Below, piece by piece: positions 11,281 through 24,120 of a DNA stretch of 38,295 bases. Source of the DNA: a virus; IMG/VR virus record IMGVR_UViG_3300027896_000108, positions 1 to 38,295 of that record, one strand, 5' to 3'. Within the stretch, counting starts at the first letter, position 1. Each line of letters opens with the position of its first letter. Made by a program: the position numbers and the translations under genes. The notes under the pieces are model-generated. The model saw only the letters and a list, made by a program, of their open reading frames with translations. It was not told the origin of the DNA and made no database searches.

Positions 11281-11997
11281 ATGTCTCAAGCGCAAACTTC
11301 GTTCGGTGTAAGCCTGCTCCGGGGCATTGTGCCCGTTGCAGAAATCACTTCCCTCACTCCGCCAACGTTCAACAGTGAGACGATCGATGTCACGAACCAC
11401 GACAGTCTTGGGCGCATGGCTGAGTTCATCGGCGGCATGAGGTCGAGCGACGACGTCAAGATCACCGGCAATCTGATTCTCGCTGACCCCGGACAGGTCC
11501 TGCTTCTGGCGGATCAGGCAGACGGATTGGTCCATGCCTATACCATCACGTTCCCGGCCGCTTGGGGCGCAAGCTTCGGCTTCTCGGCGGTTGTCCTGAA
11601 ATTTGGCGTCACTCCGTTCACCGCAAAGGGCGACGCAGTCGGGTTCGAAGTTACCATGAAGATATCTGGTGCAGTTACGTTGAACGAGACCCTTTCTGCC
11701 GGTCTCACCACGCCCTTCTTCGTCTTCTCGGCTGCTGGACTCAACGTACCAGTTGCTTCGGGCACACCAGGCACCTTTGTGAACAACCAGGCAACGGGCG
11801 CGACTTCGGTTACTCTCACGCCGACGGCTACGGCCGGGGTCATCACCGTCAATGGGGCTGTCGTTGCAACCGGTGCTCCTTCGAGCGCCATCGCTCTGGG
11901 CGCAGCCGGATCAATTACAGACGTCACCATCGTGGTCAAGGAAACAGGGAAGGTCTCCAAGACTTATCTGATTCACGTCGCGAGGGCCTCAGCCTAA
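11281..11997 (+). CDS. Major tail tube protein with C-terminal beta domain
   Basis: 238 residues with a good ribosome site (GAGGAGATAAC before ATG). Residues 1-145 match the siphovirus tail tube fold: EITSLTPPTFNSETIDVTNHD, GRMAEFIGGMRSSDDVKITGNL and ITFPAAWGASFGFSAVVLKFG. Residues about 150-238 form an added beta-sandwich (LNVPVASGTPGTFVNN, TLTPTATAGVITVNG, ITDVTIVVKETGKVSKTYLIHVARA) resembling the cadherin-like beta-sandwich (PF12733) or Ig-like decorations of tail tubes, which project from the tube surface and may help contact the cell surface. It is placed downstream of, not upstream of, the chaperone gene. Confidence 0.9.
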   Translation: MSQAQTSFGVSLLRGIVPVAEITSLTPPTFNSETIDVTNHDSLGRMAEFIGGMRSSDDVKITGNLILADPGQVLLLADQADGLVHAYTITFPAAWGASFGFSAVVLKFGVTPFTAKGDAVGFEVTMKISGAVTLNETLSAGLTTPFFVFSAAGLNVPVASGTPGTFVNNQATGATSVTLTPTATAGVITVNGAVVATGAPSSAIALGAAGSITDVTIVVKETGKVSKTYLIHVARASA

Positions 11998-12011
11998 CGT
12001 GAACTATCTGG

Positions 12012-12075
12012 CAACAACAATGTACGTCGGCATCGGGAGCAGAGACTATTCTCTGCTCCTGGATGCCGGTTGTTG
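12012..12075 (+). other. Large bipartite hairpin between tube and tape measure genes
   Basis: Core stem GGAGCAGAGA (12036-12045) / TCTCTGCTCC (12050-12059) with loop CTAT. It is extended by CGGCATC (12028-12034) / GATGCCG (12062-12068) across a 1x2 internal loop, and further by CAACAAC (12012-12018) / GTTGTTG (12069-12075) with a 9-nt bulge on the left. About 24 bp in all. GTAAGACG follows, with no T run. Confidence 0.75.
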
Positions 12076-12106: not shown

Positions 12107-14965
12107 ATGTCGACGTTGGCAAAACTGATTGTGCAGATTGGCGCGAACTCTGCGGAGTTCGAGCAGGAGATCACGAAGGTCTCCAAGCAACTCAAGGCCT
12201 TCCAGAAGGAGACGAAGGGCCTTGAACCGGTGATGGATGGCATTGGCCGAGCCCTTAAGGTTGTCGGGATTGCGGCCGTTGCTGCCTTTGCTGCTGGGGG
12301 GACCGCTGCATTTGCCTCCGGCAAGGTGATCGAACAGTACAGACTCTCGCTCACGACGCTCATGGGTAGTAGCAAGGCGGCGGGCGAGGCCGTGGCTAAT
12401 GCGTTGGCCCTGGCGGGCAAGACGCCGTTCACCGACGATCAGTTGCTTGCGGCGACGATAGCCCTCACAAAGTTCGGACAGAGTGCGCAGAGTGTGCTCC
12501 CGCAAGTTGCCAATATGGCTGCGGCCACGAACAAGGATGTTACGGAGGCTGCTGAGGCCTTTGGTGCCTTCCTACAGGGCCGTGTCAAAGCGCTGGCTTC
12601 CTATGGTATCACGAAGGCAGCAGTCCTCGCAGAGGGCGCGGCAACCGAGCAGGGGATTCAGATTACGAACCAGAAAGGCCAGATTGTCAATGAACAGGCT
12701 TATAGCAAGGCGTTGCTCTCCCTCATGGACAAGCGGTTCAAGGATGGCGCCCTTCTCCAGTCAAACAGTCTGAATGGGTTGGTCATCCGCGTCAAAGATG
12801 CGATGGAAGATGCCCTGCGAACCGTCGCTGGGTTCGCTTCTGATGGTACGATTCGCGTCGGTTCGTTCTTTGACCTCTTCAAGAAGGGTGTCACCGAGGT
12901 GATCGCCAAGATTGAGGAATGGCAGGCAAGCGGACAACTCCAGGAATGGGCCGACAAGGTGGGCAAGGCGCTGGCCGCTTTCTTCACCGGCGCTAAAGTC
13001 GTCTTCAATTGGCTGGGGAATATCGCCACATGGATCGCAGACAACTGGACGGCGATCACGGCCGTCCTTGGGGCCGTTCTAGGGGCATTCCTGGCCTTCA
13101 AGGTAGTGACGGGCATTGTTAGTGGCATCACTATCGCTTTGGGCGCGTTGAAGGCCATATTGGTGGTAACGAATGGGGTCCTGGCTCTTACGCCGTTGGG
13201 CGCCATCATGATTGCAGTGGCCGCCCTGACGGCCGTCGTTATCCTGGCGACGACCGCATGGAAACGTTTCAAGGAGTCCATGACGTTGACGGCCGATGCC
13301 TCGGCCACGAACATTGAGATCTACAAGAAGCAGCTCGAGGCGTTTGACGCGCTGACGGCCAACGGCATCGCCCTTCGGAAACAGGACGGTGCCTCAGTGA
13401 AGGTACTCGCCGACTACGAGGCTGCCCGCGCGAAAGAACGCGTGCCCCTCGAGAAGAAGGTCTATGACGAAATCGCAGCGGTGCGGGGCGCTGCCTACAA
13501 CAAACAGGCGCAGGCAGAAATAGATGCGGCGGATCGGATAGCAGCGGCCGAGAAACAGCAGCGGGATGCCAAGACCGCAGCAGACAAGGCAGCGGCCGAT
13601 GTGGCACTGGCCGCGGCAAAGACCAATGCCGAGAAGGTCGCTAAGGTCAGTTCGGATCTCGGGGACAAGATCTACAAACTCACCCATACCGCAGTCCAGA
13701 ATCAGATCTATGACCTCGAGAAAGAAGTCGCAGCGATGATCGCTGGTGGCGCTAAGAAACTGGATGCCGAGAAGTATTACGCGCTAGCCTCCAAGAAGAT
13801 TTACGCCGATGCGGCAGAGGCCAAGGCTACGGCCGAGAAAGAGGCGGCCGACAAGGCTGCAAAGGCGTGGGACGACGCGAATGCCAAGCAGATCCAAGAC
13901 GTCAAGGACACCTACGACGCGTATATCGATGCCCTGGGTGACTATGCGGACAAGCAGAAGGACGTGCAGGGCGCCCTGACGCAAGCGATCATCGACAACT
14001 ATTCGACACAAGAGGACGCGGCGGTCTCGGCCCTTGAATCAGAACGCGACACGGCGATCGACACCATCAACGATCAGATCGATGCCCGGAACAGACAACT
14101 CGAGACGACCCTCAACAACATTTCGATTGAGAAAGATGCGGCACTCGGGATCTTCGACACGCAGATTCAGGCCTTGCAGGATGCACATGCGGCAACCGAA
14201 CGGGCAGAGCGTGTTGCTGGCCTGCGGGCAGATGTCGCTAGTGCGACGACGGCAGAGGAACGCTTGAAGACACAGAAGGCGCTGGATAAGGAATTGGCAG
14301 ATGAAGCCTACAGCGACCAGCTCGAGGGCCTCAGAAAGCAGCGTGCGGCGGCCTCTGACTTCTGGGACGCGCAGACAAAGGCAGCGCAGACCGTAGCTGC
14401 GTCGGACCTGCAAGTGCTCAAGGACCAGGTGACGGCCACACAGGATTCTTATGACAGCCGGATCACCTCGGTCAAAGCCTACTATGACAACCTGAAACCC
14501 CATCGCAATGCAGATGCCGAAGCGGAGAAGTTGCTGGCCAATAAGACGCAGGGCGAGATCATGGCCATGCTCCAGGGCAGGTTAGGGGAATGGAAGGCGC
14601 TTGGCACGCAGATAGGCGATTCGGTTTATGCTGGGTTGGAAAGGGCAATAGATGCTCTCAACACGCTTATCGGGACGACGATCCCGGTGGCTCCGGTAAC
14701 GGGCGGGGGAGGCGGTGGTCGGGCGATGATTGCCCATGCTGCCGGCGGGTACTTCACGACGCCTCACATCGCGGCGATCGCCGAGCGCGAACCCGAATTC
14801 GTTGTGCCTCAATCGCAGGCGGCGGCCTTCGCTGCGCGGATGGGCAATATGCCGGTCAACGTCACCTACAACATCAATGGCGCCAGCGACATCCCAGCGA
14901 TCCGCCTGGAACTGCAGCACCACGACAAGGAACTGCTTGGCATGCTAAGAGGTGGCCGATGGTAA
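12107..14965 (+). CDS. Tape measure protein
   Basis: 952 residues, the longest gene. It sets tail length and is ejected at infection. The N-terminus (LAKLIVQIGANSAEFEQEITKVSKQLKAFQKETKGLEPV) is the typical tape-measure start. FASGKVIEQYRLSLTTLMGSSKAAGEAVANALALAGKTPF through TEAAEAFGAFLQGRVKALASYGI matches the conserved N-terminal TMP domain. Hydrophobic segments lie at about residues 47-68, 295-345 and 350-385. Residues 410-800 are Ala/Lys/Asp-rich coiled coil with many short repeats. The C-terminus (MIAHAAGGYFTTPHIAAIAEREPEFVVP) is the usual conserved G-rich tail. A strong AAAGGAGG precedes the ATG. Confidence 0.96.
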   Translation: MSTLAKLIVQIGANSAEFEQEITKVSKQLKAFQKETKGLEPVMDGIGRALKVVGIAAVAAFAAGGTAAFASGKVIEQYRLSLTTLMGSSKAAGEAVANALALAGKTPFTDDQLLAATIALTKFGQSAQSVLPQVANMAAATNKDVTEAAEAFGAFLQGRVKALASYGITKAAVLAEGAATEQGIQITNQKGQIVNEQAYSKALLSLMDKRFKDGALLQSNSLNGLVIRVKDAMEDALRTVAGFASDGTIRVGSFFDLFKKGVTEVIAKIEEWQASGQLQEWADKVGKALAAFFTGAKVVFNWLGNIATWIADNWTAITAVLGAVLGAFLAFKVVTGIVSGITIALGALKAILVVTNGVLALTPLGAIMIAVAALTAVVILATTAWKRFKESMTLTADASATNIEIYKKQLEAFDALTANGIALRKQDGASVKVLADYEAARAKERVPLEKKVYDEIAAVRGAAYNKQAQAEIDAADRIAAAEKQQRDAKTAADKAAADVALAAAKTNAEKVAKVSSDLGDKIYKLTHTAVQNQIYDLEKEVAAMIAGGAKKLDAEKYYALASKKIYADAAEAKATAEKEAADKAAKAWDDANAKQIQDVKDTYDAYIDALGDYADKQKDVQGALTQAIIDNYSTQEDAAVSALESERDTAIDTINDQIDARNRQLETTLNNISIEKDAALGIFDTQIQALQDAHAATERAERVAGLRADVASATTAEERLKTQKALDKELADEAYSDQLEGLRKQRAAASDFWDAQTKAAQTVAASDLQVLKDQVTATQDSYDSRITSVKAYYDNLKPHRNADAEAEKLLANKTQGEIMAMLQGRLGEWKALGTQIGDSVYAGLERAIDALNTLIGTTIPVAPVTGGGGGGRAMIAHAAGGYFTTPHIAAIAEREPEFVVPQSQAAAFAARMGNMPVNVTYNINGASDIPAIRLELQHHDKELLGMLRGGRW

Positions 14966-22962: not shown

Positions 22963-22984
22963 CCTACTTCAGAAGGTGACATAG

Positions 22985-23021
22985 AAAAAGCGAAGCGGCC
23001 CGGGTGAGCGGGCCGTTCCGC
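22985..23021 (-). terminator. Intrinsic terminator for leftward transcription
   Basis: On the minus strand: GCGGAACGGCCCG, loop CTCACC, CGGGCCGCTTCGC, then TTTTT. The core stem is 7 bp of pure G/C, extended by five more pairs across one mismatch. On the plus strand the same stem is followed by TTCCGC, with no T run. It is therefore directed against a minus-strand transcript, although it may also slow lysis-operon transcription arriving from the left. Confidence 0.8.
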
Positions 23022-23081
23022 ATAGGTAGGGGCTGAGTGGGTTACCCGAAGGTAGTTGCACACTAAGGCAGCCCCATAGGT

Positions 23082-23176
23082 CAGGGCGGGTGCGATTCGA
23101 ACGCACTCAAAGACCGTGCCGGTCGCGCGTAACCGGACAACACCGCGGACGCGTCTAGCCACGTTGCCGCCGCCCC
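23082..23176 (-). other. tRNA-like domain (acceptor stem plus T-arm)
   Basis: A 7-bp acceptor-like stem (one G-T), a 5-bp T-stem with consensus T-loop TTCGAAT, a GACC-GGCAC-GGTC mini-arm at the variable-arm position, and a D-loop-like GTGGCTAGA. The anticodon region cannot be folded into a normal 5+7+5 arm, and CCA is not encoded (the 3' end reads GACC). It could be a degenerate class II tRNA, a tmRNA-like domain, or a deliberate tRNA mimic. Confidence 0.4.
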
Positions 23177-23225
23177 ATAAGGTCGGGTCCGAGAAGGAGG
23201 GCACTGGAACCGGACCCGACGTTAC

Positions 23226-23236
23226 ATGATACCATG
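23226..23236 (-). promoter_or_regulatory. Minus-strand extended -10 promoter
   Basis: Read on the minus strand: CATGG then TATCAT (5 of 6 to TATAAT), giving a TGn extended -10. The expected start falls about 6-7 nt downstream at 23219-23220, exactly at the 5' base of the 10-bp hairpin. No good -35 hexamer is visible, which is typical of extended -10 promoters. Confidence 0.45.
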
Positions 23237-23367
23237 AAAGTGCGCAGGGTACAGATCCGCGAGGCTCGAAGCCTTGGAACGACACCGACAATGCCCGCAG
23301 GCGCGCTGATAGGGCCTGTCTTGGGTGATTGTCTCGTCAACTGTGTCGAAAGTGTGTCGTTTCTCGG

Positions 23368-23395
23368 TTGACACGGTGGTGGTAGTGAGTATGGT
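23368..23395 (+). promoter_or_regulatory. Rightward early promoter candidate, consensus -35
   Basis: TTGACA (23368-23373), a 16-nt spacer and TATGGT (23390-23395, 4 of 6). The direction is toward the small early genes starting at 23755, giving a leader of about 350 nt. The stretch 23237-23367 between the two divergent promoters has no supported gene. Confidence 0.5.
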
Positions 23396-23441
23396 TGGAT
23401 TAGGAAGGCAAGACGAGCCTTCGGAGCACTTCTACAGCACC

Positions 23442-23471
23442 TTGACAACGAGAGCACCGTGAGAGTAGAGG
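23442..23471 (+). promoter_or_regulatory. Second TTGACA element before the early genes
   Basis: CTTGACAAC at 23441-23449, with a poor -10 match (TAGAGG, 18-nt spacer). The same nine bases CTTGACAAC occur at 26456-26464 before the replication genes, and TAGAGGGG follows both at different distances. This hints at a shared control signal rather than chance, but the evidence is thin. Confidence 0.3.
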
Positions 23472-23754
23472 GGAAGGTCCGGCTCACGAGTTGGTAACTG
23501 CTACAGATGAGGGCGGGATCAAAATATGCCAGTCCCTCCGCCTGTCTTAACGCATAGCCCACCAGCTACGAACGGCGGCATGTACAAGACACGAGGCACA
23601 CGGGGACGCCTGCTGGTTCCCGCTCTCACCTGTGGCAGCCGCCACAAATCTACAAGCCGAACAGGTCGTTGCAGTCGAGGACTAAAGAACGGAGTGCCGC
23701 CGAGCACCCGTGTCGTCGCAGCCAAGGACCTGTTCGCTATCCAAGGAGGAGAAG
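23472..23754 (+). other. Untranslated early leader region
   Basis: No convincing gene. A perfect small hairpin TGTGGC-AGCC-GCCACA lies at 23631-23646. An ATG frame from 23526 exists but has no good ribosome site, an unusual Arg/Ser-rich composition, and overlaps the better-supported gene at 23755. It is read as the 5' leader of the early operon. Confidence 0.45.
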
Positions 23755-24120
23755 ATGACAGAGAACGAACTGCAGGAACTTGTCGATCGACTCTGCGATC
23801 AGTACGGTTACGAGCATGCGCAGGTTCAGGTGAAGGCCTTGCGGAGTTCGTATGCCTGGTGCAAGTACAAGACGAGACTTATCGTGTTCGACACGAGATT
23901 CGCCATGAGCAACACCGAGCGCACGCTGACGCGGGTCGCCAAGCATGAAATCGCACACCTGAAGTACCACAGCCACAGTCACCTGTTCGCACTGGAACTC
24001 GAACGTATGGGCATGCGCGCCTACAAGAGCACGCGCGGTCACCTGCAGGTGAAAGGTGGACAGCAGCACGTCTATACAACAGCATATTGGAGTGAACGGA
24101 TCAAGGTTCGCCGGTATTAG
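23755..24120 (+). CDS. Small SprT-like zinc metalloprotease candidate
   Basis: 121 residues from ATG 23755, with AGGAGG ending 5 nt upstream. Residues 64-68 are HEIAH, followed by LKYHSHSHLFALELERMG. H64, E65, H68 and H76 with F78 fit the HExxH(x7)HxxF pattern of SprT/WLM-type minigluzincins. The flanking region (CKYKTRLIVFDTRFAMSN) is compatible with the strand that precedes the active-site helix in that family. First gene of the early operon. The substrate is unknown; SprT-like domains in bacteria and eukaryotes act on DNA-bound proteins. The enzymatic call is from motif only. Confidence 0.75.
   Translation: MTENELQELVDRLCDQYGYEHAQVQVKALRSSYAWCKYKTRLIVFDTRFAMSNTERTLTRVAKHEIAHLKYHSHSHLFALELERMGMRAYKSTRGHLQVKGGQQHVYTTAYWSERIKVRRY

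What the first reader, a model, noticed from the sequence alone, without database searches (positions are those of the whole stretch)
22985..23236. Minus-strand structured RNA with its own promoter and terminator in an otherwise all-plus genome
An extended -10 (TGG-TATCAT), a start predicted exactly at a 10-bp 5' hairpin, further stems and a textbook minus-strand terminator (12 pairs then TTTTT) define a transcription unit of about 235 nt with no ORF. It is the only leftward unit in the genome and sits between the late lysis genes and the early promoters, where a regulator of the lytic programme would be placed. No known family was recognised.
Basis: partly seen in the sequence, partly recalled or inferred. 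Interest (0 to 1): 0.8.

Follow-up and report, generated by a model that had tools for sequence, protein, structure and literature searches.

The report
Phage small RNA with tRNA-like domain
This phage, and two others found in environmental DNA, carry on the strand opposite their genes a small RNA gene with its own start and stop signals; its middle part mimics a transfer RNA, which suggests that it engages the host's tRNA machinery, although what it does is untested.

Summary
On the minus strand of 22985-23234 lie an extended -10, a 5' hairpin, further stems and a strong terminator; the stretch folds better than 199 of 200 shuffles. First, the middle (23083-23176) is tRNA-like: a 7-bp acceptor stem and a 5-bp T-stem with a canonical T-loop (GTTCGAATC), although ARAGORN and Rfam do not call it. 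Second, it has relatives. Two uncultured phages (L019, L026) carry the same unit antisense, between holin and early genes. Hairpin 1 (loop TTCCAG(G)TGCCCTCCTTC) and the -10 are well conserved, as is the terminator of L019, while the middle is rebuilt: it keeps acceptor and T-arm, with compensatory T-stem changes, but in L019/L026 the anticodon arm is gone. No ORF is conserved. I conclude that this is a real phage small RNA made of an SD-complementary (CCUCCUU) hairpin, a tRNA mimic and a terminator. Its function is inferred: the mimic recruits or decoys tRNA-handling proteins, and the loop pairs with ribosome-binding sites. A test of the loop against the phage's own start sites was inconclusive. 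No described family fits.

The parts
23226..23234 (-). Extended -10 (TGG-TATCAT) of the leftward promoter; -35 poor
   Evidence: Sequence; TTTCrTGsTAkCrT kept in L019 and L026
23182..23220 (-). Hairpin 1: 11-bp stem, loop with CCUCCUU (23200-23194), complementary to Shine-Dalgarno AAGGAGG
   Evidence: Fold; 43/48 identical in L019; the outer nine pairs invariant in three members
23083..23176 (-). tRNA-like domain: acceptor stem 23176-23170 with 23089-23083, T-arm 23106-23090 (GTGCG-TTCGAAT-CGCAC), 63 nt between them
   Evidence: Signature seen once in the window, twice in 400 shuffled windows; T-stem with two pairs changed on both sides in relatives
23029..23075 (-). Hairpin 3 (GGGGCTG ... CAGCCCC); dispensable, absent in L026
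   Evidence: Fold; comparison of the three members
22985..23021 (-). Intrinsic terminator: stem 23021-22990, then TTTTT
   Evidence: 38/42 identical in L019, hairpin of other sequence but same design in L026

Best explanation
It is a phage-encoded, trans-acting small RNA of about 235 nt, transcribed leftwards from its own promoter and ended by its own terminator. It has two working parts. The 5' hairpin presents a C-rich loop (GUGCCCUCCUUC) that can pair with Shine-Dalgarno sequences. The centre is a tRNA mimic (acceptor stem plus T-arm, a D-arm-like element, no decoding arm needed). The mimic is recognised by enzymes that read the acceptor/T-arm of tRNAs (RNase P, RNase Z, CCA-adding or T-loop-modifying enzymes). 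They process or protect the transcript and so free the 5' hairpin, which blocks translation of mRNAs, more likely host than phage. Shown from sequence: the unit, its conservation, the T-arm, the loop and the lack of any conserved ORF. Inferred: transcription, processing, targets. Rough odds: real RNA gene 0.85; tRNA-like centre meaningful 0.8; processing plus SD pairing as the function 0.3-0.35.
For: Promoter, hairpin and terminator are in order on one strand, and the fold is beyond shuffles in the window and in L019 (z -3.3 and -4.3). Two phages with the unit at the same place and orientation. Canonical T-loop GTTCGANTC invariant in all three and right only on the minus strand; T-stem compensatory changes. 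L026 folds by itself into hairpin 1, acceptor/D/T domain and terminator, MFE equal to centroid. Rfam's sub-threshold hits on the relatives' domain, same strand, are tRNA-Sec and full-length mascRNA. C-rich loops of Gram-positive sRNAs pair with SD sites (PMC4132741); noncoding RNAs use tRNA mimicry to recruit RNase P (PMC4810234). Hairpin 1 is conserved in sequence, the centre only in structure, as expected of a pairing loop plus a shape-read module.
Against: The free optimum of the window's domain (-45.0) breaks the T-arm; the cloverleaf is -40.4. In L019 the two forms are nearly tied (-24.4 and -23.9). The acceptor has a bulge in the relatives; no CCA; no U8. ARAGORN and Rfam do not call it. 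Only three members in two lineages, so covariation is thin (53 of 500 shuffles as good). The loop pairs with the phage's own start sites no better than shuffled loops and no long complementary site lies at one of them. No expression data.
Confidence: 0.4

Rival explanations
1. The tRNA mimic is itself the effector: a decoy that ties up a host tRNA-acting protein, such as a tRNA-cleaving anti-phage nuclease or toxin, a modification or processing enzyme, or EF-Tu. Hairpin 1 and the terminator only flank and stabilise it.
For: The centre is rebuilt between phages while its ends stay, as in an arms race; the relatives lack an anticodon arm that an anticodon nuclease could cut. YrlA's tRNA-like domain has been proposed as a competitive inhibitor of an anticodon nuclease (PMC7790460).
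Against: Does not explain why the sequence of the hairpin 1 loop is kept. No tRNA-targeting system of the host is known, as the host is unknown.
Confidence: 0.25
2. A captured and decayed tRNA gene, or an attachment-site remnant, carried by chance inside an otherwise ordinary small transcript.
For: The D-like stretch GTGGCTAGACGCG resembles tRNA-Leu by eye; no CCA and an irregular middle.
Against: A T-arm with other stem pairs is kept in relatives at the same place; a relic would decay. No integrase was recognised among the proteins scanned. The relatives are shorter but still paired.
Confidence: 0.12
3. An OOP- or RNA I-like regulator acting on the replication or early region by antisense pairing.
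For: Leftward, between lysis genes and the early promoter at 23368-23395, upstream of an O-like replication gene.
Against: It overlaps no recognised gene; the O-like gene is 3.4 kb away; the early promoter lies beyond the unit, so early transcripts do not contain its complement.
Confidence: 0.1
4. The stems act as DNA or on the plus strand, for instance ending or processing late transcripts, with no minus-strand RNA.
For: Stems exist on both strands, and the plus-strand leader 23402-23754 is also structured (z -3.7).
Against: The T-run, the -10 and the canonical T-loop are right only on the minus strand, and all are kept in relatives.
Confidence: 0.07

Closest known systems
Bacterial Y RNA YrlA (Rfam RF02553)
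   Same: Bacterial noncoding RNA with a tRNA-like domain carrying a T-loop
   Different: From general knowledge, YrlA's 5' and 3' ends pair into a Ro/Rsr-binding stem; here the ends form separate hairpins and the acceptor is closed by the domain's own ends. Only an 11.8-bit partial hit on the T-arm of L026; no Rsr gene was seen among the proteins scanned.
mascRNA/menRNA of MALAT1/MEN beta (Rfam RF01684)
   Same: Compact tRNA mimic of about 56-58 nt inside a longer noncoding RNA; full-length sub-threshold hits in L019 and L026 (13.0 and 16.1 bits)
   Different: Eukaryotic; below the gathering score of 42.5; resemblance is convergent at most
C-rich-loop sRNAs of Gram-positive bacteria (RNAIII, RsaE, LhrC)
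   Same: Hairpin loop with C-rich sequence complementary to Shine-Dalgarno sites (PMC4132741)
   Different: CCUCCUU rather than UCCC repeats; those do not carry a tRNA mimic as far as I know; no target shown here
Lambda OOP RNA and other phage sRNAs
   Same: Short leftward phage RNA with its own promoter and terminator beside the early control region
   Different: OOP is antisense to cII; this RNA overlaps no recognised gene and has a tRNA-like centre

Membership tests
functional tRNA | T-arm with canonical T-loop and seven-pair acceptor stem | tested here: met
   Window: 5 + 7 pairs, GTTCGAATC; relatives have one bulge in the acceptor
functional tRNA | Anticodon arm with a seven-base loop | tested here: not met
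   Irregular in the window; 11 unpaired nt instead in L019/L026
functional tRNA | Recognised by ARAGORN or by Rfam RF00005/RF01852 at gathering score | tested here: not met
   best 19.0 bits against 47
tmRNA | tRNA-like ends around a tag reading frame | tested here: not met
   ARAGORN finds none; the tRNA-like part is internal
YrlA Y RNA | Match to RF02553 and a stem formed by the 5' and 3' ends | tested here: not met
   No hit in the window; 11.8 bits on the L026 T-arm only, gathering 69; ends form separate hairpins
mascRNA-menRNA | Match to RF01684 at gathering score | tested here: not met
   13.0 and 16.1 bits in relatives against 42.5; none in the window
SD-targeting C-rich sRNA | Exposed C-rich loop complementary to Shine-Dalgarno | tested here: met
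   CCUCCUU in the loop of all three
SD-targeting C-rich sRNA | Pairs with and represses target mRNAs | tested here: inconclusive
   Own start sites: mean duplex energy -14.6 against -13.6 (sd 0.9) for shuffled loops, best site not special; host targets not testable
OOP RNA | Antisense to the end of a regulatory gene (cII) | tested here: not met
   The unit lies between recognised genes, 22963-23754

The most novel reading that the evidence does not exclude
A new class of phage-encoded RNA: a compact, decoding-arm-less tRNA mimic joined to an anti-Shine-Dalgarno hairpin, carried as an independent antisense cassette, that captures host tRNA-handling or tRNA-cleaving proteins and represses translation. 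The middle is exchanged between phages while promoter, hairpin and terminator stay.
Probability: 0.3. Interest if true: 0.85.

Novelty: new variant of a known kind. Interest (0 to 1): 0.6.

Why it matters
Phage small RNAs of known function are few, and I found no paper in the library describing a phage sRNA that carries a tRNA mimic. If the RNA recruits or decoys tRNA enzymes, it links phage RNA regulation with host tRNA biology, a common target of anti-phage defence, and gives a small, testable module that tRNA finders and Rfam overlook.

Tried and rejected
Protein-coding: the 132-codon minus frame is broken in both relatives. Ordinary tRNA or tmRNA: ARAGORN and Rfam negative. Relatives by terminase: nine loci, mostly fragments, none with the RNA detected; G002 has a minus-strand lipoprotein-like ORF in that slot instead. 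Lysin as bait: none. Phage and plasmid blastn of the unit: chance only. T-loop and D-arm patterns: one ordinary phage tRNA-Leu and nothing. Hairpin-1 patterns in 85,000 bacterial and archaeal genomes: no convincing homologue; nine hits without the surrounding structure, judged by eye. Hairpin-1 covariance model in about 800 genomes of two phyla: weak hits at chance level. L017 15771-15835 matches the T-arm signature but lies inside an 88-aa ORF; taken as chance. Own-gene targets of the loop: not beyond shuffles. Amber-suppressor reading of CUA in L019/L026 (UUCUAGA): no proper stem, and the window lacks U33; dropped. My first pattern excluded L019 by a slip and was replaced.

Full report
Observation. 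Among 178 stretches of 240 nt it has the second-largest excess. The terminator has the most G-C pairs of any listed in the window. Every gene recognised in the window lies on the plus strand (terminase, portal, capsid, tape measure, endolysin, O-like replication protein, methyltransferases). Weak points: the -35 is poor, and an unconserved 132-codon frame crosses the unit.

Read 5'-3' on the minus strand, 23176-23083 is GGGGCGG ... GTGCG-TTCGAAT-CGCAC-CCGCCCT: a seven-pair acceptor stem and a five-pair T-stem with the canonical tRNA T-loop. A scan for this signature (T-arm plus seven acceptor pairs 41-90 nt upstream) finds it once in the window and twice in 400 dinucleotide-shuffled windows; the signature was defined after seeing it, so this is a guide, not a clean p-value. 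Between the two helices lie 63 nt that can form a D-like arm, an irregular arm and a variable-arm-like hairpin; the constrained cloverleaf is -40.4 kcal/mol, but the free optimum, -45.0, breaks the T-arm. ARAGORN and Rfam do not call a tRNA.

Relatives. The first recognised early gene product (23755-24120, YgjP-like metallopeptidase) led to L019, IMGVR_UViG_3300036979_000499, in which hairpin 1 (43/48 identical) and terminator (38/42) are present at the corresponding place and orientation, 92 nt apart instead of 149. A loop pattern then found L026, IMGVR_UViG_3300037042_002382, about 92% identical to L019 in this region. L019's contig has no match to the window's terminase, so the RNA seems to travel with the lysis/early junction and not with the structural genes. 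The -10 region TTTCrTGsTAkCrT, the outer nine pairs of hairpin 1 and the loop TTCCAG(G)TGCCCTCCTTC are kept in all three. A hairpin-1 covariance model gives 83-101 bits for the three, which it was built from, and nothing else convincing among the loci held.

The middle in relatives. L019: GGGCCCTGG-CTCC-GGTGA-GGAG-TTCTAGACTGC-GCGGG-TTCGACT-CCTGC-CCAGGCCC; L026 is nearly the same. Both can form an acceptor helix with one bulged C, a D-like arm, 11 nt where the anticodon arm would be, and a T-arm. Across the three members the T-stem is 100% paired with two of five pairs changed on both sides (with three sequences the shuffle control is weak, 53 of 500). The nine-nt core GTTCGANTC is invariant. 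L026 folds on its own, MFE equal to centroid, into hairpin 1, acceptor/D/T domain and terminator hairpin. Rfam's sub-threshold hits on this domain in L019 and L026, on the right strand, are tRNA-Sec (17.4 and 19.0 bits) and full-length mascRNA-menRNA (13.0 and 16.1 bits). Hairpin 3 is different in L019 and absent in L026, so it is not essential. L026's terminator hairpin has another sequence but the same design.

Reading. Two kinds of conservation stand side by side: sequence in hairpin 1, structure in the tRNA-like centre. That fits a base-pairing loop joined to a module that proteins read by shape. The loop contains CCUCCUU, the complement of AAGGAGG; C-rich motifs that occlude Shine-Dalgarno sites are described for Gram-positive sRNAs (PMC4132741). 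RNase P, RNase Z and other enzymes recognise the tRNA elbow, and several noncoding RNAs use tRNA mimicry to recruit RNase P (PMC4810234). I therefore favour a trans-acting RNA whose mimic is used for processing or protection and whose hairpin pairs with mRNAs. The main rival is a decoy for a tRNA-acting host protein: the rebuilt centre and the missing anticodon arm suit it, and YrlA's tRNA-like domain has been proposed to inhibit an anticodon nuclease (PMC7790460). Against specific phage targets: the loop does not pair with the phage's own start sites better than shuffled loops, and no long complementary site lies at one of them. The host is unknown; terminase and methyltransferase relatives point loosely to Clostridia phages.

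Known or new. Phage small RNAs with their own promoter and terminator are known (OOP and others; review PMC12197685, whose text does not contain 'tRNA'). tRNA-mimicking bacterial RNA is known (YrlA). Searches of the paper library for phage tRNA-like small RNAs gave nothing that describes this, but that library lacks most subscription papers. It fails at least one defining feature of each named structural family, so I rate it a new variant of a known kind, with a real chance of being a new RNA family. The limits are plain: three sequences in two lineages, no host, no expression data.

Noticed in passing
window 23402-23754 (+): The leader between the early promoter (TTGACA-16-TATGGT, 23368-23395) and the first recognised early gene is itself strongly structured (353 nt, z -3.7, 0 of 100 shuffles) and has no Rfam match.
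   Followed up: partly
window 12011-12074: A long, nearly perfect hairpin without a T-run sits between the ORF ending at 11997 and the tape-measure gene at 12107; largest fold excess of the 178 stretches scanned.
   Followed up: no
L019 3350-3623 (and L026); single copy near window 23310: Repeats of GAGCCTGTCTTGGGC lie between the RNA promoter and the early promoter; possible operator or origin repeats. The window has one related copy, GGGCCTGTCTTGGG.
   Followed up: no
L014 18570-19064 (-) and L013 405-1154 (+): The related phage G002 has in the same slot a minus-strand lipoprotein-like ORF followed by a ParA-like ORF (read by eye), suggesting that this junction accepts independent cassettes and that G002 may be a plasmid-like prophage.
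   Followed up: no
window 23234-23371 (+): A 45-codon plus-strand ORF starts just behind the RNA promoter; no SD at a usual distance, and its conservation was not tested.
   Followed up: no
L017 15771-15835 (+): A T-arm plus six of seven acceptor pairs and a five-bp D-like hairpin in a related phage, but inside an 88-aa ORF; probably chance.
   Followed up: partly
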